Shown: in pieces, positions 28,022 through 50,152 of the stretch
Layout of the letters: each line of letters opens with the position of its first letter
Numbering within the stretch: position 1 is the first letter of the stretch
Assembly: GCA_030706745.1 (NCBI GenBank)
Contig: JAUZNX010000003.1
Span: forward strand, 62,001-126,000
From: Bacteroidota bacterium
Lineage (GTDB): Bacteria; Bacteroidota; Ignavibacteria; Palsa-1295
Direction: 5' to 3'
DNA: 64,000 nucleotides
Program-made: the position numbers and the translations under genes
Notes under the pieces: generated by a model
What the model saw: the letters and a program-made list of their open reading frames with translations, nothing else
Databases searched by the model: none
What the model was told of the DNA's origin: nothing

Positions 28022-29137
28022 TCAATTGGCCGACTGCCGGACAACATTCAGTGAGCGCATGTTCCTTTCAGCGAACTCGAAGATGTCTTCCACATCTGCT
28101 TGTTCGCGAAGCCATTCCACATAATCTCTGACACTTTCTTCGACCTGTCGAGACGGATTCCAGCCGAGTGCCTTGAGCTTGGAAATATCTGAGCAAGAAT
28201 TTCTAGTATCACCAAACCGAAACGCTCCTGGCAGGCTCGGCTGAACATCCTCACACCCTGAGATCCTTGCGACGATTCGGTCGAACTCCGATACCGTATA
28301 GGCCAGTCCACCGCCAACGCAAAACTGCTCGCCGACCATTCGTTCGTCCTCAAGCGCCATTAGATTTGCATTGACCACATCATGGATGTTAATGAAATCC
28401 CGATGCATCTGGCCGTCTTCATAGATGGTAGGCGCCTTTCGGAAATAATAATGAAGCGCAAAGATCCGACAGGCACCACTATAGGCATTATAAAAAGATT
28501 GTCGCGGCCCCTGGACAATCGAATATCGAAGCGCGACACTGGGAATATCATAGCGGCGTCCAAAAGATAGTGTCATTTTCTCCTGAGATTCCTTCGAGAG
28601 TGCATACTGATTCTCAGGATGCGAGAAGCTTTCAGGTGTCCATTGCCACTGCATTGCCTCGCCGCAGATTGCGCAGCGCATAGCCCAATCGCCATGCTCA
28701 AGTTGGCCGATCGGGCGCGCCGTCGGCCCCTGTAATCCATGCTGCTCGCACTTATATAGCCCCTCACCGTTGACTGCCTGGGAACTAGCGACAACGACTC
28801 GTTTCACTGGAAGCTTGTGAGCAACGATGAGCTCATAAAGCAGCGCAGTCCCGACAGCATTAACGCTAAAAAAGGTGCTGAAGTCGGGTAGATAATCCTG
28901 ATAGGCAGCAAGATGGACTACTTTCTCAACGCCATTCAACGCATCGAGGAAGACCTTTGGATCGCGAACATCCCCGATTATCAGTCTTGCTTTTGGATGA
29001 AGGTAGGTCGGTATCCCCTTCAAATGTACTGGCTTAGAGAGATTGTCTAATAATACGACTTCATCGCCGCGCTCGATCAGAGCATCTGCCGTGTGAGAAC
29101 CGATAAAGCCGGCGCCGCCAGTAATTAGTATTTTCAT
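28022..29137 (-). CDS. NAD-dependent nucleotide-sugar epimerase/dehydratase
   Basis: 371 aa. Extended SDR fold: Rossmann motif ITGGAGFIGSHTADALIERG, Ser-containing VVASSQAVNGEG and catalytic YALSK (Y-x-x-x-K). A Cys pair in RCAICGEAMQWQW forms an unusual inserted loop between the Ser and Tyr motifs. Such enzymes interconvert UDP- or GDP-sugars in the cytoplasm; which sugar cannot be read from the sequence. It is the last gene of the minus-strand polysaccharide locus. Its upstream flank is a dispersed inverted repeat. Confidence 0.8.
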   Translation of the reverse strand: MKILITGGAGFIGSHTADALIERGDEVVLLDNLSKPVHLKGIPTYLHPKARLIIGDVRDPKVFLDALNGVEKVVHLAAYQDYLPDFSTFFSVNAVGTALLYELIVAHKLPVKRVVVASSQAVNGEGLYKCEQHGLQGPTARPIGQLEHGDWAMRCAICGEAMQWQWTPESFSHPENQYALSKESQEKMTLSFGRRYDIPSVALRYSIVQGPRQSFYNAYSGACRIFALHYYFRKAPTIYEDGQMHRDFINIHDVVNANLMALEDERMVGEQFCVGGGLAYTVSEFDRIVARISGCEDVQPSLPGAFRFGDTRNSCSDISKLKALGWNPSRQVEESVRDYVEWLREQADVEDIFEFAERNMRSLNVVRQSAN

Positions 29138-29242: not shown

Positions 29243-29752
29243 CTATTCGTCTGTCGGCTGCATGGCTACCTTATCCCCTGCGCGGTTTACCCATCCAGCA
29301 TGTCGCGCCGGGCAGCCGACAACAAGCTCGAAGTTGCGAACGTCTTTAGTGACAACTGCGCCAGCGCCAATCATGGCGTAATGTCCGACTGTGATGCCAG
29401 CCAAAATCGTTGCGTTTGCGCCAATGGAAGCGCCTTCGAGCAAGCTTGTGCGAACAGGTTCGGCATGATAGACTTTACTCCTGGGCCGCGTGTCGTTCGT
29501 GAATGCAACATTTGGCCCGACGAAAACCCGGTCGCCGAGTTCGACGCCATCCCAGACGCTTACGCCATTCTTGATTGTCACATCGTCCCCGATCACGACT
29601 CCACTCTCAACAAAAGCGTGATCCCCAATATTGCAGCCTTTCCCGATACGCGCACCTTTCATCACATGCGCGAACGCCCAGACCCGCGTGCCAGCACCGA
29701 TCTGATCCGATTCAACTAAAGCCTGGGGATGGATAAAAACTGGGTCAGCCAT
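29243..29752 (-). CDS. Left-handed beta-helix acyltransferase, WbpD-like
   Basis: 169 aa. Hexapeptide repeats run through the protein (IGAGTRVWAFAHVM, IGKGCNIGDHAFVESGVVIG, then IGANATILAGITVGHYAMIG). The loop FTNDTRPRS and the ending VGCPARHAGWV are typical of WbpD/FdtC-like N-acetyltransferases acting on the 3-amino group of UDP-sugars. With the Gfo/Idh/MocA oxidoreductase and the DegT aminotransferase of the same locus it completes a WbpB-WbpE-WbpD-like set (inference). The enzyme is likely a trimer in the cytoplasm. Confidence 0.8.
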   Translation of the reverse strand: MADPVFIHPQALVESDQIGAGTRVWAFAHVMKGARIGKGCNIGDHAFVESGVVIGDDVTIKNGVSVWDGVELGDRVFVGPNVAFTNDTRPRSKVYHAEPVRTSLLEGASIGANATILAGITVGHYAMIGAGAVVTKDVRNFELVVGCPARHAGWVNRAGDKVAMQPTDE

Positions 29753-29779
29753 GGGACGGTAAACACAGCTTCAAAGAAA

Positions 29780-29860
29780 GTCATTGCGCGAAGTCCGCGA
29801 AGCAATCTTGGCCGTGAGAGTCTCGCCTCAAAACGAGATTGCTTCGCTTCGGTCGCAATA
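29780..29860. repeat. Dispersed inverted repeat, GTCATTGCG type
   Basis: GTCATTGCGCGAAGTCCGCG and GAAGCAATCT on the left face AGATTGCTTCG and GGTCGCAATA on the right. This is another widespread intergenic palindrome type, located between the acetyltransferase gene and the 3' end of the T9SS cargo gene. Confidence 0.7.
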
Positions 29861-29877
29861 ACGGCAAAATAAGGAGG

Positions 29878-31971
29878 CTATCGGACCAGCATCATGGGCA
29901 AAGTCTCAACTCGCCCATTCATCCGAACAAGGCATATATATGTCCCATCTGGCAAATAGCCCGGCTTCCACTCGATACTATGCTCCCCTGCTGCCATTTC
30001 ACCCGCGAAGATCTGCGCGATCTCCGTGCCCACCAGGTTCAGGATCGTGATCTTGGTAAATGCGCCGACTTCTGTGCTGAAAGTGATTGTGGTTGAGCGC
30101 GCAAATGGATTTGGATGGCTGTAAAGTTCACGCTTAACTATCGGCACTCCAGTAACAGATCGTTGACTAATTATCTCCGAGAGAGGACGACGCCAGACAC
30201 CCGAACCATACGTCCCGGCGAAGATATCAGTGCCGCCAATAATCAGACTGGTGACAAAAGCATTATCAAGACCGGCATTCGCTACGCTCCAACTCATACC
30301 TCCGTTTGTTGAGTAAAACACGCCACTACTCGTCCCGGCAAAGACATTACTCCCAACGGCTGCCAATGTATACACAACAATGTTCGAAAGACCCGTATTG
30401 GAGATATTCCACGTCAAGCCTCGGTCCGTGGATCGGAAGACACCGCCGAAGGTCCCGGCAAGCACATCGCTCCCACTAGTGATGAGCGAATAGACATCGG
30501 GATTGGTGAGGCCTGAATTAGCGGCGGCCCAACTGGCACCGCTATCCGTTGAACGGAATGCTCCTCCGCCATTCGTACCAGCGAAGAGATAGGTGCCACT
30601 CTTTACCAATGCGCGAACGGAAGTAATACTCAGTCCACTGTTCACTGCCACCCAGCTTGCTCCTCGATTCGTAGATCGAAACACTCCATTGATGCCAGTC
30701 CCGGCATAAAGATCGGAGCCATCCAGCAGCAGCGCACGGACGTTAGCGTCGGTCAAGCCTGAACTTGCGGGAGTCCAGCTTGCACCGGAGTTGGTTGAAT
30801 GATAGACACCGCCGGAAGTCCCCGCAAAAAGATCGGTATCATCCGAAGCAATAACAGCGATATTGTTTGCATCGAATGAGTTGAGACCACTCGCTGCAGG
30901 TTTCCAGGTAGCACCCTCATCGGTGGTAGAAAAAATACCCTCGCCATCCGTGCCCGCAAAGAGCTTTGTGCCCATTAGTGCCAGATCGTAGACATCGGTG
31001 TTTGTCAGGCCCGAGTTTGTCGATCTCCATTGCGCACCCGAATCAACAGTAATATAGACACCACCGCCGCCCAGACCGGCCAATAGATACGTCCTCCCAA
31101 TCCCAGCAAATGCGTACACTGGATAGTTCGATGGCAATCCGGTATTCTGCAGGCTCCAACTTCGACCGGTGTCACTCGAATAATAGATCCCGCCACTGGT
31201 GGCACCAGCATATAGCTTCGAACCGAGCACGGCAAAAGCGTACACGGGTTTACTGATGGGTAGTCCATTATTGATCGGGCTCCATGACTCTCCTTTATCG
31301 CTCGAACGAAGGAGGCCGCTTCCTCCTCCAGCCGCGGCAAACAGGTAGGGGCCATTTACTGCAAGCGCATTGATCGTGATATTCTCGATCCCGGACCGCA
31401 CAGGAATCCAGCTTGCTCCACTATCCGTCGACCGAAATACTCCGGCGTTCGTACCTGCGTATAGAATAGTCCCATTCACGACGAGAGCATGGATGACCGT
31501 GTTCGTCAGTCCTGAATTTGCAGACGTCCAGTGCCCACCATTGTCACTGGAGAGAAACACCCCCACATCAGTGCCGGCATAAATGGCTGTGTCACGCGCC
31601 GCCATGGTAAGGACTTCGCTCGTTGCGAGTCCGCTGCTGGCGCTTGTCCAGGTTATTCCATCGTCACTCGAACGAAACACGCCACCGTAGGTAGCAGCGT
31701 AGAGATAGTCCCCGCTTGCAAGCAGTTCGCGAACATCGAGATCGCCTAATCCGGCATTGACCATTCTCCAGCTGTTGCCGTTGTTCGTGGACCGGAACAC
31801 TCCGCCGGTATATGTTCCTGCGAAGAGATAATGACCTTGTACCGCGAAAGTCTGGATAAAACCGCCGACTGGGCCGTCCGTTTGCACCCATTGAGCGCAT
31901 AGCGGCATTGGCGCGAACGCGAACGCCGCGAAGATAGCAACTGCAATGTATCGACTCGGGACTTTGAACAT
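29878..31971 (-). CDS. T9SS cargo protein with BNR/YCF48-like beta-propeller repeats
   Basis: 697 aa. Signal peptide (IAVAIFAAFAFAPMPLCAQ). The body is built of about twelve ~45-residue units, each with an FAGT-x-x-GVFRST-D-G-x-SW core, the Asp-box/BNR pattern of beta-propellers (VYHSTNSGASWTPASSGL is one). From about residue 615 the chain carries a T9SS type A sorting domain: YSHPNPFARSTTITFSTEV, NLVGTEIAQIFAGEM, WKPGYLPDGTYICLVRMNGR and the end LPMMLVR. The propeller may bind glycans or proteins outside the cell. It lies within the polysaccharide locus in the same direction. Confidence 0.85.
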   Translation of the reverse strand: MFKVPSRYIAVAIFAAFAFAPMPLCAQWVQTDGPVGGFIQTFAVQGHYLFAGTYTGGVFRSTNNGNSWRMVNAGLGDLDVRELLASGDYLYAATYGGVFRSSDDGITWTSASSGLATSEVLTMAARDTAIYAGTDVGVFLSSDNGGHWTSANSGLTNTVIHALVVNGTILYAGTNAGVFRSTDSGASWIPVRSGIENITINALAVNGPYLFAAAGGGSGLLRSSDKGESWSPINNGLPISKPVYAFAVLGSKLYAGATSGGIYYSSDTGRSWSLQNTGLPSNYPVYAFAGIGRTYLLAGLGGGGVYITVDSGAQWRSTNSGLTNTDVYDLALMGTKLFAGTDGEGIFSTTDEGATWKPAASGLNSFDANNIAVIASDDTDLFAGTSGGVYHSTNSGASWTPASSGLTDANVRALLLDGSDLYAGTGINGVFRSTNRGASWVAVNSGLSITSVRALVKSGTYLFAGTNGGGAFRSTDSGASWAAANSGLTNPDVYSLITSGSDVLAGTFGGVFRSTDRGLTWNISNTGLSNIVVYTLAAVGSNVFAGTSSGVFYSTNGGMSWSVANAGLDNAFVTSLIIGGTDIFAGTYGSGVWRRPLSEIISQRSVTGVPIVKRELYSHPNPFARSTTITFSTEVGAFTKITILNLVGTEIAQIFAGEMAAGEHSIEWKPGYLPDGTYICLVRMNGRVETLPMMLVR

Positions 31972-32009
31972 AGAGTTAACCGAAGTCGATGAGGCGATGA
32001 ATGGTGCCC

Positions 32010-33017
32010 CTAGTTGTCACGCCTCGCTTCCTTCATGATCATTTCCAGCAGCCGTACAACCTCAACGCCGATCGCTCCGCCATTGATCGGTTTCTTCCCA
32101 CTCTCGATGCAATCGACGAAGTGGCGGCACTCAGCGGCCAGCGGCTCATGTCGCGGCAGTGTCGGAATGAAGATGTCTCCGGGACGGTATGTGAGTTCGG
32201 CGGATCCGGACTCATCGGCACCGATGCGGGTGTCCACGGCGGCGGAATAGATCTTGACTTTCTCGGCCGGCTGCATATCGTCGAATACGACAGTGCCATG
32301 CTCAGCCGAGATTTGCATGAGGCGCACTTTGTTCGACGTGACCCAACTCACGTGAACATGGGCTGTCATGCCACATTCGAACTCGATGAAGATATGAGTC
32401 AGATCAGCAAGTTTCTCTTTAACGAAACTACCGGCCATGACGCGCATGGACCGAACGTCGGTTGGAAGTCCGGTTTGCCACATCAGATAAATCAGGATTG
32501 ATAGATCGTGCGGCGCCAAATCCCACACCACATCGACTTCGGATGCTGGGGGTCCAAGATTGATGCGAATTGAATCGATATGGAATAATCGACCAAGATT
32601 CCCACTGGAAATTCGAGTTGCGAGCCACTCGACTGCCGGCGAGAATTGATAGACATGACCGACAGTCAGTACTTTGCCGAGGGAGTCCGCAAGATCACGA
32701 AGTTTTCGCGCGTCGTCATATGAATATGCCATCGGCTTCTCGATCATGGCATGCTTGCCGCTTTCGAGGACGCGGCGACCCACATCGTAATGAGTCGGTA
32801 CAGGCGTCGCAACGACGACGGCGTCGATCTCCGGATCGGCGAGGATGCTCTCCATGTCGTCCGTCGTCCGAATGTGCGGGTACCGTTTAGAGACGAAGGA
32901 GAGTCTCCCCTGCTTCTTGTCCGCTACGGCCGCGACGACCGCGCTCTCGGTATCGTTAAATGCGCGAACGAGGTTCGATCCCCAATAGCCCGCTCCGATA
33001 ATGCCAATTCTTACCAT
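32010..33017 (-). CDS. Gfo/Idh/MocA-family oxidoreductase, WbpB-like
   Basis: 335 aa. The N-terminal Rossmann domain begins MVRIGIIGAGYWGSNLVRAF, binding NAD(P). The sugar-binding motif is HAMIEKPMAY (EKP), followed by VGHVYQFSPAVEWL and the His region WDLAPHDLSILIYL in the C-terminal domain. In the Wbp route such an enzyme oxidises the 3-OH of UDP-GlcNAcA to the keto sugar used by the WbpE aminotransferase. That substrate is inferred from the company of the DegT and hexapeptide genes. Confidence 0.85.
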   Translation of the reverse strand: MVRIGIIGAGYWGSNLVRAFNDTESAVVAAVADKKQGRLSFVSKRYPHIRTTDDMESILADPEIDAVVVATPVPTHYDVGRRVLESGKHAMIEKPMAYSYDDARKLRDLADSLGKVLTVGHVYQFSPAVEWLATRISSGNLGRLFHIDSIRINLGPPASEVDVVWDLAPHDLSILIYLMWQTGLPTDVRSMRVMAGSFVKEKLADLTHIFIEFECGMTAHVHVSWVTSNKVRLMQISAEHGTVVFDDMQPAEKVKIYSAAVDTRIGADESGSAELTYRPGDIFIPTLPRHEPLAAECRHFVDCIESGKKPINGGAIGVEVVRLLEMIMKEARRDN

Positions 33018-33026
33018 GCTACGTTG

Positions 33027-34484
33027 TTAACCTCCACCCTTTCCTGTTAGCACTACACCAACTGTTCGAAGAATAATCGCGGCATCGAGCCAGAGCGAGA
33101 TGTTATGGATGTAGTACAAATCCAAGATCACCATATCGTTGAAGCTCACGGATGAGCGGCCGCTCACTTGCCAGAGTCCTGTCATTCCGGGCCGAACGGC
33201 AAACCGCTCCTTGTGCCAGGCGGCATACTGTTCGAACTCATACGGCAGACATGGACGTGGACCAACCAAACTCATGTCGCCTCGCAAAACATTGTATAAC
33301 TGAGGCAACTCGTCAAGTGAATGGCGTCGAAGCCAACGCCCGATGGGCGTAATACGCGGGTCGTTTTCCAGCTTCCCAGTCGGGCGCGTACCAAGTTGAA
33401 TATGCTGTGCTACGTGTTCGCGGTGGAGTTCATCGCTCGGGCCGAGTTGCATCGTTCGGAATTTGAACCAGCGAAATCGCTCACCATGTTGACCAATCAC
33501 TTCCGTGCTAAAGAAAATAGGCCCACGACTTCCAAGTTTGATCGCAACGACAATGATTGCAAGGAATGGCGACAAAAGAACCAATCCGATGATGGTGCCG
33601 ACGAGATCGACAAAGCGCTTCAGCGAGGTTGAGTAGAATCCATGCAGTCCATGTGAGATTGGCGCTGCCGTGACGTTCAGGAACTCGGATGTACTTTTAG
33701 TCACCCGCTCGTGGATGACTTTGAAATGATCGCTGAGCAAATGAATCGGCACGCCTGTCTCCCGTGCTTCACCAATGAGCCGAACGACGTCCTCGTATGG
33801 AAGGTCATTCTCGGCCACAACAACTTCGTGGATATTGTATTTCAGAACAAACTCCTTTAGGAGTGGTACAGTCGTGAGCAGAAGAGCCGCAGAAGAATCC
33901 TGCGAGAGCGAGCCACCTTGATCGACCATCGCGACAATCTCGAAGGGATGGATTCGGCCGCTGGTGCTCTCGGCCAGCAGAGCGCGCGCCTCCTCACCGG
34001 CACCGACCAAAAGAATGCGGCGGGCCTCGATTCCCGTGATGGCTGGAAGCAACAGCTTCCGATAGAGTACGATGCGAAAAAATGATAGCAGTACAAGCGA
34101 CGAAACGGTGAACAGGAACAGGTTTGTCCGACTATGCTGAATCCAATCTTCGCGCAAGAAAAACAGTACGGCAATCAGCAATAACGCATTGATTAGTAAC
34201 GCCCGGGCAAGCTGAGCAAATTGGGAGACACCCGTCGAATAGACCTTGTATTTATAGAGAAGATGTTGGCGAAAGATAAGCACCAGCAACGGGAAAGATG
34301 CATAGAGAATCGCGACACGTAAGATATACTCGCCAAGCGAATGTTCGACATCATAAGAATCGAAGCCGGCGAAATAATGCAACAAGAGCGTTGTGACCGC
34401 CGCCAGCGTGACCGCGACGAAATCGAGGAGGACCAGTGAAATTTTCGGCCAGCCGTGCCGGCGAATCGCAGTTTCGAAAATCAC
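33027..34484 (-). CDS. Polyprenyl-phosphate sugar phosphotransferase (WbaP/WcaJ-like)
   Basis: 485 aa with a GTG start that overlaps the aminotransferase stop (GTGA). Four N-terminal transmembrane helices, a CoA-binding-like central domain (RRILLVGAGEEARALLAE), a fifth helix (LVGTIIGLVLLSPFLAIIVV) and the catalytic C-terminal domain: KLGSRGPIFFSTEVIGQHGE, FKFRTM, RRHSLDELPQLYNVLRGDMS, LVGPRPCLPYE and KPGMTGLWQVSGR-like RPGMTGLWQVSGR. Such enzymes transfer sugar-1-phosphate from UDP-sugar to undecaprenyl phosphate, the first membrane step of exopolysaccharide or O-antigen synthesis. Confidence 0.93.
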   Translation of the reverse strand: MIFETAIRRHGWPKISLVLLDFVAVTLAAVTTLLLHYFAGFDSYDVEHSLGEYILRVAILYASFPLLVLIFRQHLLYKYKVYSTGVSQFAQLARALLINALLLIAVLFFLREDWIQHSRTNLFLFTVSSLVLLSFFRIVLYRKLLLPAITGIEARRILLVGAGEEARALLAESTSGRIHPFEIVAMVDQGGSLSQDSSAALLLTTVPLLKEFVLKYNIHEVVVAENDLPYEDVVRLIGEARETGVPIHLLSDHFKVIHERVTKSTSEFLNVTAAPISHGLHGFYSTSLKRFVDLVGTIIGLVLLSPFLAIIVVAIKLGSRGPIFFSTEVIGQHGERFRWFKFRTMQLGPSDELHREHVAQHIQLGTRPTGKLENDPRITPIGRWLRRHSLDELPQLYNVLRGDMSLVGPRPCLPYEFEQYAAWHKERFAVRPGMTGLWQVSGRSSVSFNDMVILDLYYIHNISLWLDAAIILRTVGVVLTGKGGG

Positions 34485-35605
34485 TTACTCTTCCTCCCAT
34501 TCGTATAAAATGTCCGAATGGTCTTCGCGACGAACTCAATTTGTTCGTCGCGCATCTCGGGATACATCGGAAGCGAAAGAATCCTCTTGGCAGCGTGTTC
34601 CGCTTTTGGAAATGCCCCTTCCTTGTACCCAAGCTGTGCAAATGCCGGTTGCATATGTAATGGCACGGGATAGTGAAGCCCAGCCCCAATGCCGTTTGCC
34701 TCCAGATGATCACGGAGGTTATCTCGACGGTCCGCCTGTATCACGAAAAGATGATAGACCGGGTCCGACAAAGGATGCTCAAGAGGAAGCTGGATCGGCT
34801 CGCAGTCTGCCAACAATTCAGAATATCGGGCAGCATGGGCACGGCGGAGATTAGTCCATTGTGCGAGATGCTGTAATTTCACGTTAAGTATTGCTGCCTG
34901 CAGTGCCTCCATCCGATAATTATGACCGGCCATGACATGCTGGTACTTTGTCTCGGAGCCGTGATCGCGCAGGAGGCGCATTCTTCGATTCAATTCCGCA
35001 TTATGGGTGATGACCGCACCGCCCTCGCCATATGCGCCTAAGTTCTTTCCAGGGTAAAAGCTGAAGGCGGTGGCATCGCCCCAGGAACCGATGGACTTGC
35101 CATCGAACGTTGCCAGATGTGCTTGTGCGGCGTCTTCAACCAGCCAGAGATCATGCCGCTCAGCAAGCGCGGCAAGTTTATCCATCCGTGCGGGCTGGCC
35201 ATAGAGATGCACTGGTAAAAGGGCCTTCGTCCGGCGGCGAATTCGAGCGGCGGTCTGCTCGACGTCGAGATTATAGTATTCATCGTGATCGACAAACACT
35301 GGCGTTGCGCCTGTTAACACTACCGCTTCAGCAGTCGCGATGAAGGTATTGACAGGCACGATCACCTCATCCCCACGCTGGAGGCCGAGAGCCCAAAGTG
35401 GCAGATGCACGGCACTCGTGCCATTATTAACGGCAATTCCATGAGGCGCATTATGTGTCCGTGCGAATGCCTCCTCGAATGCCGATACCTCCGGTCCGAG
35501 GATATACTGTCCGGAATCGAGCACGCGCGTGATGGCCTGAGCGATCTCGCTGTGAATCGAATGGTATTGTTCTTTCAGGTCGAGGAAAGGAACGCGCATG
35601 TTCAT
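34481..35605 (-). CDS. DegT/DnrJ/EryC1 sugar aminotransferase, WbpE/PorR-like
   Basis: 374 aa; I chose the ATG that overlaps the upstream stop (ATGA) because it places MRVPFLDLKEQY at the N-terminus as in the family. This is a PLP fold-type I enzyme: NNGTSAVHLPLWALGLQRGD, VEDAAQAHLATFDG and the PLP lysine in FSFYPGKNLGAYGEGG (about residue 185). It transfers an amino group from glutamate to a keto sugar, and in the Wbp pathway it makes the 3-amino sugar. In Porphyromonas the homologue PorR is needed to anchor T9SS cargo on the cell surface. Substrate specificity here is inferred. Confidence 0.9.
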   Translation of the reverse strand: MNMRVPFLDLKEQYHSIHSEIAQAITRVLDSGQYILGPEVSAFEEAFARTHNAPHGIAVNNGTSAVHLPLWALGLQRGDEVIVPVNTFIATAEAVVLTGATPVFVDHDEYYNLDVEQTAARIRRRTKALLPVHLYGQPARMDKLAALAERHDLWLVEDAAQAHLATFDGKSIGSWGDATAFSFYPGKNLGAYGEGGAVITHNAELNRRMRLLRDHGSETKYQHVMAGHNYRMEALQAAILNVKLQHLAQWTNLRRAHAARYSELLADCEPIQLPLEHPLSDPVYHLFVIQADRRDNLRDHLEANGIGAGLHYPVPLHMQPAFAQLGYKEGAFPKAEHAAKRILSLPMYPEMRDEQIEFVAKTIRTFYTNGRKSK

Positions 35606-36924
35606 GTCGCTGGCTGAAGCTCTCCCATTTGCTCCTTTAAGGTTTCCACTTCGTCCGGACTCAGCACCATGGTTTCCAAGCCACGCAGGACTCGATCCTC
35701 GTAGCACAGTCGTGCGCCGAACCCCATGAAAACAAAGAGATACTGTGTAAAGACGTAAAAATAAAAGAAGGTATTATCGTTCGTGCAGCTCACGGCAAAC
35801 ATAATCGGCGTCATGACCAGAATAGCACGGTACGGGAAATATGCCTTGACCCCTCTGCCCCACCATAAGCCACGCACGAGGATGTCTGCAAGCCCCAGGT
35901 AAAACAATGCCAGCCCTATGATGCCGCCATCGAAACGAATACGAAGATACTCATTATGTGGGGCGCCCACCATGGTGACATGTTCGGTGAGCCACTGGGC
36001 ATATTTCTCCGTTCCGCCCGCACCATATCCCCACAACGGTCCCTCCTCGGCTTTATCCTCGAAGTATTTCTGGAAAAAGGCGCGCCCCGAATCGCGCATG
36101 TTCAGGGACTCGTCAGAATTCAAGAACTTGTTCCGCGTCGGAAGGAGAAAAAGCGTGCCGACGAGCATCGCGAGCACAACGATGCCGATCACGGCAAATT
36201 TCAGGCTGCGGCGATAGATGATGGCCACCAAGGCCCCAGCAATGAACGTGAACGTGGGAGTTCGACTTCCGGCAATGAGCATAAGAAAGACGTCAATGGC
36301 AAACACCGCCAAGAGTCGCCACTCAAATGCATCCATCAGACGCATCAAAAGGATCGTACTCATCGTGACATAGAAATACGCAGTCACGGTCCGGTATCCG
36401 ATCACCCCTTCTGACATTGCGCCGGCTCGCTCAATCATGGTCCAGCCATTATACGCGTTATACAGATCGAATACTGCCACGACAAGGTTGATCGCGATCA
36501 TCCACTTGAGGTATTTCTCCAGGTGAAGATCGTTCTGGATTACATTGAAAGCAACCAGATACAGAAACGAAGGGAAGGCAATCTCGAGGACCGTCCGGAC
36601 TCCAGTTGCCAGGTTGTTCGTCCAAAAGAGTGAGGCGAAATAATAGGCGAGAAACAACCACCAGAACTTTGGCGAATATTTCCATGCGCGCCGTCGCTCG
36701 GTCGCACTGAGTTTCTGCCATACCATGATGCAGACCACCATCGGTAGCACTCCGCTAAACAACTCAACTTCGGTGAACCCCAGGTTGATATAGAGGCTCT
36801 TGAATCCGAAAATGATATAGAAAATCGGCGTCGCGAACGACCAGAGAATTGTGTATTGCCGCTCGGTCTTGGAAATCAGGCCGATCAGCAGCATGAGGAT
36901 CGCGATCGCGATAATCGTATTCAT
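35602..36924 (-). CDS. O-antigen ligase/polymerase-like membrane protein
   Basis: 440 aa with about eleven transmembrane helices. It has the large extracytoplasmic loop of the Wzy/WaaL superfamily between late helices, containing FFQKYFEDKAEEGPLWGYGAG and VGAPHNEYLRIRFDGGIIGL (the His and Arg in HNEYLRI are typical). It polymerises or ligates undecaprenyl-linked glycan on the periplasmic side. The start overlaps the end of the upstream glycosyltransferase (ATGA), and the stop overlaps the aminotransferase start. Polymerase versus ligase cannot be decided from the sequence. Confidence 0.85.
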   Translation of the reverse strand: MNTIIAIAILMLLIGLISKTERQYTILWSFATPIFYIIFGFKSLYINLGFTEVELFSGVLPMVVCIMVWQKLSATERRRAWKYSPKFWWLFLAYYFASLFWTNNLATGVRTVLEIAFPSFLYLVAFNVIQNDLHLEKYLKWMIAINLVVAVFDLYNAYNGWTMIERAGAMSEGVIGYRTVTAYFYVTMSTILLMRLMDAFEWRLLAVFAIDVFLMLIAGSRTPTFTFIAGALVAIIYRRSLKFAVIGIVVLAMLVGTLFLLPTRNKFLNSDESLNMRDSGRAFFQKYFEDKAEEGPLWGYGAGGTEKYAQWLTEHVTMVGAPHNEYLRIRFDGGIIGLALFYLGLADILVRGLWWGRGVKAYFPYRAILVMTPIMFAVSCTNDNTFFYFYVFTQYLFVFMGFGARLCYEDRVLRGLETMVLSPDEVETLKEQMGELQPAT

Positions 36925-50118: not shown

Positions 50119-50152
50119 TCACGGTGCAAGCAGGAGCTTGCACCTACACACC
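50087..50152. repeat. Double-palindrome element fused to the end of a T9SS gene
   Basis: Palindromes GGGGCAAGCtcctGCTTGCCCC (two 9-bp arms, 50093-50114) and GTGCAAGCaggaGCTTGCAC (50124-50143) lie in a pair closed by outer arms GTGTAGG/CCTACAC. The minus-strand gene reads into it and ends inside (stop at 50119-50121), gaining the C-terminus VCRCKLLLAP. The layout is like the element in the type IIG gene but the sequence differs. Confidence 0.8.

What the first reader, a model, noticed from the sequence alone, without database searches (positions are those of the whole stretch)
29243..35605. WbpB-, WbpE- and WbpD-like genes with a T9SS cargo gene in the polysaccharide locus
The oxidoreductase, aminotransferase and acetyltransferase form the central three steps for 2,3-diamino sugars. 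In Porphyromonas this route (with PorR as the WbpE-like enzyme) makes the sugar that joins T9SS cargo to anionic LPS. A T9SS cargo gene lies between the oxidoreductase and acetyltransferase genes on the same strand. The locus may make the anchor and one of the proteins to be anchored.
Basis: partly seen in the sequence, partly recalled or inferred. Interest (0 to 1): 0.55.

Follow-up and report, generated by a model that had tools for sequence, protein, structure and literature searches.

The report
Diacetamido-sugar module in polysaccharide locus
A conserved set of sugar-building genes in an uncultured bacterium probably makes the first sugar of a surface polysaccharide, and the secreted-protein gene that sits among them looks like a passing neighbour rather than its partner.

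Summary
The genes are real: a Gfo/Idh/MocA oxidoreductase (32010-33017), a DegT aminotransferase (34481-35605) and a hexapeptide N-acetyltransferase (AcT, 29243-29752), with a T9SS cargo gene (29878-31971) between the first and the last. A polyprenyl-phosphate glycosylphosphotransferase (GPT) lies between oxidoreductase and aminotransferase. Two results weaken the anchor-plus-cargo idea. (1) In 19 related loci read, GPT and Gfo stay together, but the cargo slot is empty in 10 of the 16 that keep AcT; it is filled only within the genus (6 of 7), by two kinds of passenger, a frameshifted copy, a CTD remnant and toxin-like genes. The cargo's C-terminal domain recurs at 14 other places in the genome. 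(2) The Gfo model fits GnnA (UDP-GlcNAc 3-dehydrogenase, rmsd 1.6) better than WlbA/WbpB (2.8). Best reading: a Wzy-type locus whose module makes a nucleotide-activated 3-acetamido (probably 2,3-diacetamido) sugar that the GPT loads onto the lipid carrier. A T9SS linking-sugar role stays possible but unsupported. New member of a known kind.

The parts
28022..29137 (-). SDR-family NAD-dependent epimerase/dehydratase of the module (371 aa)
   Evidence: PF01370 119 bits; 58-85% identical in 13 module loci
29243..29752 (-). hexapeptide-repeat sugar N-acetyltransferase (AcT; WbpD/WlbB/FdtD-type)
   Evidence: PF00132; best PDB 4mzu, 7s43, 3mqg; 54-86% identical in 11 loci
29878..31971 (-). T9SS cargo: BNR beta-propeller with C-terminal sorting domain; read as an insertion in a variable slot, not a module part
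   Evidence: families; slot comparison; CTD recurs in the genome
32010..33017 (-). Gfo/Idh/MocA oxidoreductase, probable nucleotide-sugar 3-dehydrogenase, GnnA-like
   Evidence: PF01408; NF040723 sub-cut-off; AF2 model best match 7bvj/7bvk GnnA Z 37.5
33027..34484 (-). polyprenyl-phosphate glycosylphosphotransferase (GPT, initiating enzyme)
   Evidence: TIGR03025 366 bits over cut-off; PF02397 212 bits; next to Gfo in 19 of 19 loci read
34481..35605 (-). DegT/DnrJ/EryC1/StrS aminotransferase, C3-type by its nearest solved relatives
   Evidence: PF01041 402 bits; best PDB 2oga, 7b0d, QdtB 3frk, WbpE
35602..36924 (-). Wzy/O-antigen-ligase-like membrane protein
   Evidence: PF04932 58.9 bits
36921..38084 (-). 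glycosyltransferase family 4
   Evidence: PF00534 92.8 bits
38091..39143 (-). glycosyltransferase
   Evidence: PF13524 86 bits
39089..41077 (-). glycosyltransferase fused to a methyltransferase domain
   Evidence: PF00534 and PF13489

Best explanation
The locus is a Wzy-type surface polysaccharide operon. Its conserved core (DegT-GPT-Gfo-AcT-SDR) makes a nucleotide-activated sugar with an acetamido group at C3 and loads it onto the lipid carrier. Inferred order: Gfo oxidises C3 of a UDP-sugar, most likely UDP-GlcNAc as GnnA does; DegT transaminates the 3-ketone; AcT acetylates the new amine, giving UDP-GlcNAc3NAc; the SDR may epimerise or otherwise alter it; the GPT transfers the sugar phosphate to the carrier; the glycosyltransferases and Wzy extend and polymerise. 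Shown: gene families, order, conservation, fold match. Inferred: substrate, product and order of steps. The T9SS cargo gene sits in a variable slot of this operon and need not take part.
For: Families. In 19 of 19 loci read (of 27 class genomes with Gfo at E<=1e-84) GPT is the direct neighbour of Gfo; SDR in 18 of 19 (the 19th contig ends), AcT in 16 of 19, DegT in 13 of 19 (2 untestable at contig ends, 4 without). AF2 model of Gfo (pLDDT 86.5, pTM 0.86) fits GnnA 7bvj best: Z 37.5, rmsd 1.6 over 297; WlbA 3q2k ranks 26th, Z 34.0, rmsd 2.8 over 307; Foldseek top hit also 7bvj. Profile search of PDB sequences: 7bvj 2.8e-28 (4th), 3q2k 5.9e-17 over the Rossmann part only. AcT's three best solved families include WxcM-like and Wlb-type enzymes. 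Tight spacing from DegT to Gfo (-4 and 9 bases) against 38 and 125 around the cargo. Slot comparison.
Against: GnnA identity to the Gfo is only 25% and Z differences of 3.5 within one fold family are modest; the best sequence match is 3c1a of unknown function. The genome has a second Gfo (C10) that is a much closer GnnA relative (9.1e-62), so the window Gfo may have another substrate. Four loci of family f4 lack a DegT match, three of them lack AcT too, so the module's product varies or the reading is incomplete there. No enzyme here has been assayed.
Confidence: 0.62

Rival explanations
1. One reading: the three enzymes make the T9SS linking sugar (Wbp/Vim type, 2,3-diacetamido uronate precursor), and the cargo in the operon is one protein anchored by it.
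For: PorU, PorV, SprA present. wbp genes are also scattered in P. gingivalis (PMC4031482, passages), so missing neighbours are no objection. Dehydrogenase and 2-epimerase at C4, an eps_aminotran_1/asparagine-synthase-like gene at C10:101156 (529 bits to TIGR03108, cut-off 817) and a FemAB/GNAT-like protein at C8 could supply further steps. Linking sugars differ between T9SS species (PMC11969387, passages), so patchy distribution does not exclude it.
Against: Gfo is nearer to GnnA than to WlbA. No TIGR03019 match. C4 dehydrogenase plus WecB looks like a UDP-ManNAcA pair (best curated models are UDP-ManNAc dehydrogenases, best PDB 4r16). Five of six other genomes of the family outside the genus have PorU but no Gfo at 1e-60. 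Cargo slot empty in 10 of 16 loci.
Confidence: 0.1
2. The module makes a dTDP-3-acetamido-3,6-dideoxyhexose (Qui3NAc/Fuc3NAc type), as the nearest solved aminotransferases (DesV, QdtB) and acetyltransferase (WxcM-like) suggest.
For: 2oga and QdtB outrank WbpE for DegT; 4mzu WxcM-like and 7s43 slightly outrank 3mqg for AcT.
Against: Those pathways make the 3-ketone with a cupin isomerase (recalled), none of which was seen in the locus; here a Gfo stands in its place. The SDR scores only 90 bits against dTDP-glucose 4,6-dehydratase (cut-off 365).
Confidence: 0.15
3. True UDP-GlcNAcA pathway (WbpB/E/D) for an O-antigen-like polymer with GlcNAc3NAcA or ManNAc3NAcA, unrelated to T9SS.
For: Same three enzyme families as in P. 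aeruginosa (PMC4031482, passages); dehydrogenase and 2-epimerase available at C4.
Against: Fold and profile rankings favour GnnA; no dehydrogenase or 2-epimerase in this locus or in the related loci as far as annotated.
Confidence: 0.13

Closest known systems
GnnA/GnnB route to UDP-GlcNAc3N (Acidithiobacillus ferrooxidans GnnA, PDB 7bvj/7bvk)
   Same: Gfo/Idh/MocA 3-dehydrogenase fold, rmsd 1.6 over 297 residues, followed by a DegT aminotransferase
   Different: Here an N-acetyltransferase and a GPT replace lipid A acylation; identity only 25%; the genome has a closer GnnA relative at C10
Wbp/Wlb pathway to UDP-GlcNAc3NAcA (WbpA, B, E, D, I)
   Same: Oxidoreductase, aminotransferase and acetyltransferase families
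   Different: No WbpA or WbpI in the locus; Gfo ranks WlbA 26th
Wbp/Vim linking-sugar pathway of P. gingivalis and T. forsythia (PMC7468200)
   Same: Same three enzyme families; PorU present in the genome
   Different: No clear VimA; VimE not looked for; link to cargo not shown
Wzy-dependent exopolysaccharide loci with a TIGR03025 GPT
   Same: GPT, Wzy-like protein and glycosyltransferases in one operon
   Different: No flippase or chain-length regulator was identified in the stretch scanned

Membership tests
Wbp/Vim T9SS linking-sugar pathway | T9SS with PorU sortase in the genome | tested here: met
   NF033707 682 bits, cut-off 420, PorV next to it; SprA
Wbp/Vim T9SS linking-sugar pathway | WbpB acting on UDP-GlcNAcA | tested here: inconclusive
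   Gfo model fits GnnA better than WlbA; substrate not assayed
Wbp/Vim T9SS linking-sugar pathway | WbpE (PorR) C3 aminotransferase | tested here: inconclusive
   DegT of the right family; DesV and QdtB rank above WbpE
Wbp/Vim T9SS linking-sugar pathway | WbpD 3-N-acetyltransferase | tested here: inconclusive
   WxcM-like, 7s43 and 3mqg all near 1e-45 to 1e-49
Wbp/Vim T9SS linking-sugar pathway | VimA amino-acid transferase | tested here: inconclusive
   No TIGR03019 match at 1e-3; one PF13480/FemAB-like protein at C8
Wbp/Vim T9SS linking-sugar pathway | VimE deacetylase | not tested
   No search made
Wbp/Vim T9SS linking-sugar pathway | Linking sugar on cargo C-termini | not testable with these tools
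   Needs mass spectrometry
GnnA-type UDP-GlcNAc 3-dehydrogenase | Fold and closest solved relative | tested here: met
   7bvj Z 37.5, top of VIA-align and Foldseek lists
GnnA-type UDP-GlcNAc 3-dehydrogenase | Curated-model membership (NF040723, archaeal UDP-GlcNAc 3-dehydrogenase) | tested here: not met
   154.7 bits, cut-off 450; the C10 paralogue also misses it (203 bits)
T9SS type A cargo (TIGR04183) | CTD over cut-off | tested here: not met
   21.2 bits, cut-off 23; its near relatives in the genome pass, so probably a true CTD
Polyprenyl glycosylphosphotransferase TIGR03025 | Model score | tested here: met
   366 bits, cut-off 295.6

The most novel reading that the evidence does not exclude
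In this genus the GnnA-like route makes a non-uronate 2,3-diacetamido sugar that serves as PorU's linking sugar, a third linker chemistry beside those of Porphyromonas/Tannerella and Prevotella, and the operon keeps a slot in which cargo passengers are exchanged in front of a fixed CTD.
Probability: 0.06. Interest if true: 0.6.

Novelty: new member of a known kind. Interest (0 to 1): 0.2.

Why it matters
It separates two things that look joined in one genome: a conserved sugar module and a chance-prone secreted-protein neighbour. Linking sugars outside Porphyromonas, Tannerella and Prevotella are little known (PMC11969387, passages), so candidate loci in deep-branching T9SS bacteria are worth having, but they need chemistry rather than gene adjacency.

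Tried and rejected
Cargo as a conserved module part: rejected on the slot comparison. CTD as slot-specific: rejected, since the non-slot CTD at 50119 is 47-67% identical to the four slot CTDs, which are 46-60% identical to each other, and 14 other CTDs in the genome match at 43-55%. WbpE residues as a test of uronate specificity (recalled as N227/R229): not discriminating, since the N-x-R pattern is shared by WbpE, QdtB, 7b0d and the window protein. PorU co-occurrence as a test: PorU is universal in the class (245 of 245 matched, 233 over cut-off), so it says only that PorU does not need the module. Searches for WlbA/GnnA papers gave nothing useful. Foldseek's best 50 rows hold no WlbA; VIA-align lists it at rank 26.

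Weak points of my own scripts: three of twelve CTD rows (L001, L002, L005) were read on the wrong strand and are noise; they went into the ad hoc CTD profile with the others, and four of the six slot hits were among its own training rows, so only the L079 (88 bits) and L042 (17 bits, E 1.2e-4) hits are independent. ORF lists are greedy and can drop overlapped genes. Eight of the 27 close Gfo loci were not read; two loci that were read (L092, L093; E 9.2e-77 and 1.7e-73) lie outside the 27 and have Gfo without GPT. Of 10 loci, I compared six (L039-L044) by script.
Full report
WHAT IS THERE. The window lies in contig 3 of a 3.81-Mb genome in 30 contigs, 99.5% complete. A scan of named genomes puts it in a genus with 'Candidatus Kapaibacterium sp.' MAGs: the Gfo is 94% identical in JADGPZ010000119 (L043) and 83-85% in four others. 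On the minus strand, from 43 kb down to 28 kb, run a membrane-type protein without Pfam match, a biotin-carrier protein, a glycosyltransferase-methyltransferase fusion, two glycosyltransferases, a Wzy-like protein, DegT, GPT, Gfo, the cargo, AcT and an SDR. From DegT to Gfo the genes touch or nearly touch (-4 and 9 bases), while 38, 125 and 105 bases separate Gfo-cargo, cargo-AcT and AcT-SDR.

WHAT THE ENZYMES ARE. DegT: PF01041 402 bits, best solved relatives DesV-type 2oga, 7b0d, QdtB, then WbpE. AcT: WxcM-like 4mzu, 7s43 and 3mqg within four orders of magnitude of each other. That these are C3-acting enzymes is recalled knowledge of those proteins. Gfo: no curated family passes its cut-off; the best is UDP-GlcNAc 3-dehydrogenase NF040723 at 154.7 of 450 bits. 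A profile of 13 module Gfo proteins finds 3c1a (function unknown) first, GnnA 7bvj fourth at 2.8e-28 and 3q2k at 5.9e-17 over the nucleotide-binding part only. An AlphaFold model from the same alignment (pLDDT 86.5) aligns with GnnA at Z 37.5, rmsd 1.6 over 297 residues, and with WlbA at Z 34.0, rmsd 2.8 over 307; titles of both entries come from that call. This favours UDP-GlcNAc over UDP-GlcNAcA as substrate but does not prove it, since many sugar dehydrogenases of the family score Z 34-36. A second Gfo at C10 is the closer GnnA relative, 9.1e-62.

CONSERVATION. Of 245 genomes of the class, 78 have a Gfo match at E<=1e-60 and 27 at E<=1e-84 (43% identity or more). I read 19 of those 27 loci (window, L039-L043, L079-L091). 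GPT is the direct neighbour of Gfo in 19 of 19. The SDR is present in 18 of 19 (the contig of L042 ends before it), AcT in 16 of 19 (not seen in L083, L086, L090), DegT in 13 of 19 (L043 and L085 begin too late to tell; L081, L083, L086 and L090 have none). The SDR is 58-85% identical in 13 loci. A biosynthetic set kept beside an initiating GPT is best read as making the sugar that the GPT transfers; this is inference.

THE SLOT. Among the 16 loci with AcT, the gap between Gfo and AcT is at most 6 bases in 10. It is filled in six, all in the window's genus: window (697-aa BNR cargo), G030 (708 aa, passenger 33-38% identical), G040 (BNR protein whose CTD lies in another frame, plus a PIN-domain protein, a glycosyltransferase and, further on, another CTD gene), G094 (312 aa, different passenger, plus a ParE-like toxin), G067 (317 aa, passenger 35% identical to that of G094) and G080 (a short CTD remnant, E 1.2e-4, and toxin-antitoxin-like frames read by eye). 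The seventh genus member, G010, has Gfo and AcT overlapping. So the cargo is an occupant of a variable slot. But this CTD type recurs at 14 other places in the genome at 43-55% identity, and at least 150 CTDs exist.

T9SS AND THE LINKING SUGAR. PorU with PorV beside it, and SprA, are present. PorU is matched in 245 of 245 class genomes, over cut-off in 233, so it does not depend on this module; five genomes of the same family (G020, G050, G059, G074, G100) have PorU and no Gfo at 1e-60, while G087 has both. In P. gingivalis the linking sugar needs WbpA, B, E, D and VimA, VimE (PMC7468200, abstract, passages and one section read). Here: dehydrogenases at C1 (TuaD-like, followed by an SDR) and C4 (best curated models UDP-ManNAc dehydrogenases, directly before a WecB-type 2-epimerase); no TIGR03019 match; one FemAB/GNAT-like protein at C8 with no deacetylase annotated beside it by me; an asparagine-synthase/eps_aminotran_1-like gene at C10. 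These leave the linking-sugar reading possible. P. intermedia uses an N-alanyl deoxyhexose and lacks WbpB and WbpD (PMC11969387, passages), so linkers vary and absence in relatives cannot refute the idea for this genus.

VERDICT. A common type of polysaccharide locus with a conserved 3-acetamido-sugar module. Interest low; new member of a known kind.

Noticed in passing
L086 3916-10133 and L083 4965-10018: In two genomes of family f4 the genes between Gfo and SDR are an FkbM methyltransferase, 2-oxoacid dehydrogenase E1-like proteins and a protein fusing a lipoyl domain to a NeuD/PglD-like hexapeptide acyltransferase. This suggests an acyl-lipoyl group as acyl donor to a sugar; unusual and worth its own study.
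   Followed up: partly
L091 12101-13671; L082 6368-9163: Beside the SDR, several relatives carry a heptose-7-phosphate-kinase-like GHMP kinase and a GmhA-like isomerase, hinting that the SDR may act on an activated heptose there.
   Followed up: partly
window 28022-29137: In the window's family the SDR carries a C-x2-H ... C-x2-C insertion that looks like a zinc site and is absent in the other families aligned (alignment, read by eye).
   Followed up: no
L039 12250-12546; L042 3010-3717: ParE-like toxin gene and similar frames (by eye) in the same Gfo-AcT slot in two genomes.
   Followed up: partly
L014 (C4:150001-170000) and L012: A second Wzy-type locus with nucleotide-sugar dehydrogenase, WecB, GPT and a DegT closer to WbpE.
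   Followed up: partly
L097 8153-9151 and 1156-3063: A closer GnnA relative beside FtsH, 5 kb from an asparagine-synthase/eps_aminotran_1-like gene; possibly lipid A diamino sugar.
   Followed up: partly
L044 7870-11801: In an Omnitrophota MAG a Gfo (39%) and an AcT-like gene lie next to an asparagine-synthase-like gene (start motif read by eye), reminiscent of WbpS neighbourhoods.
   Followed up: no
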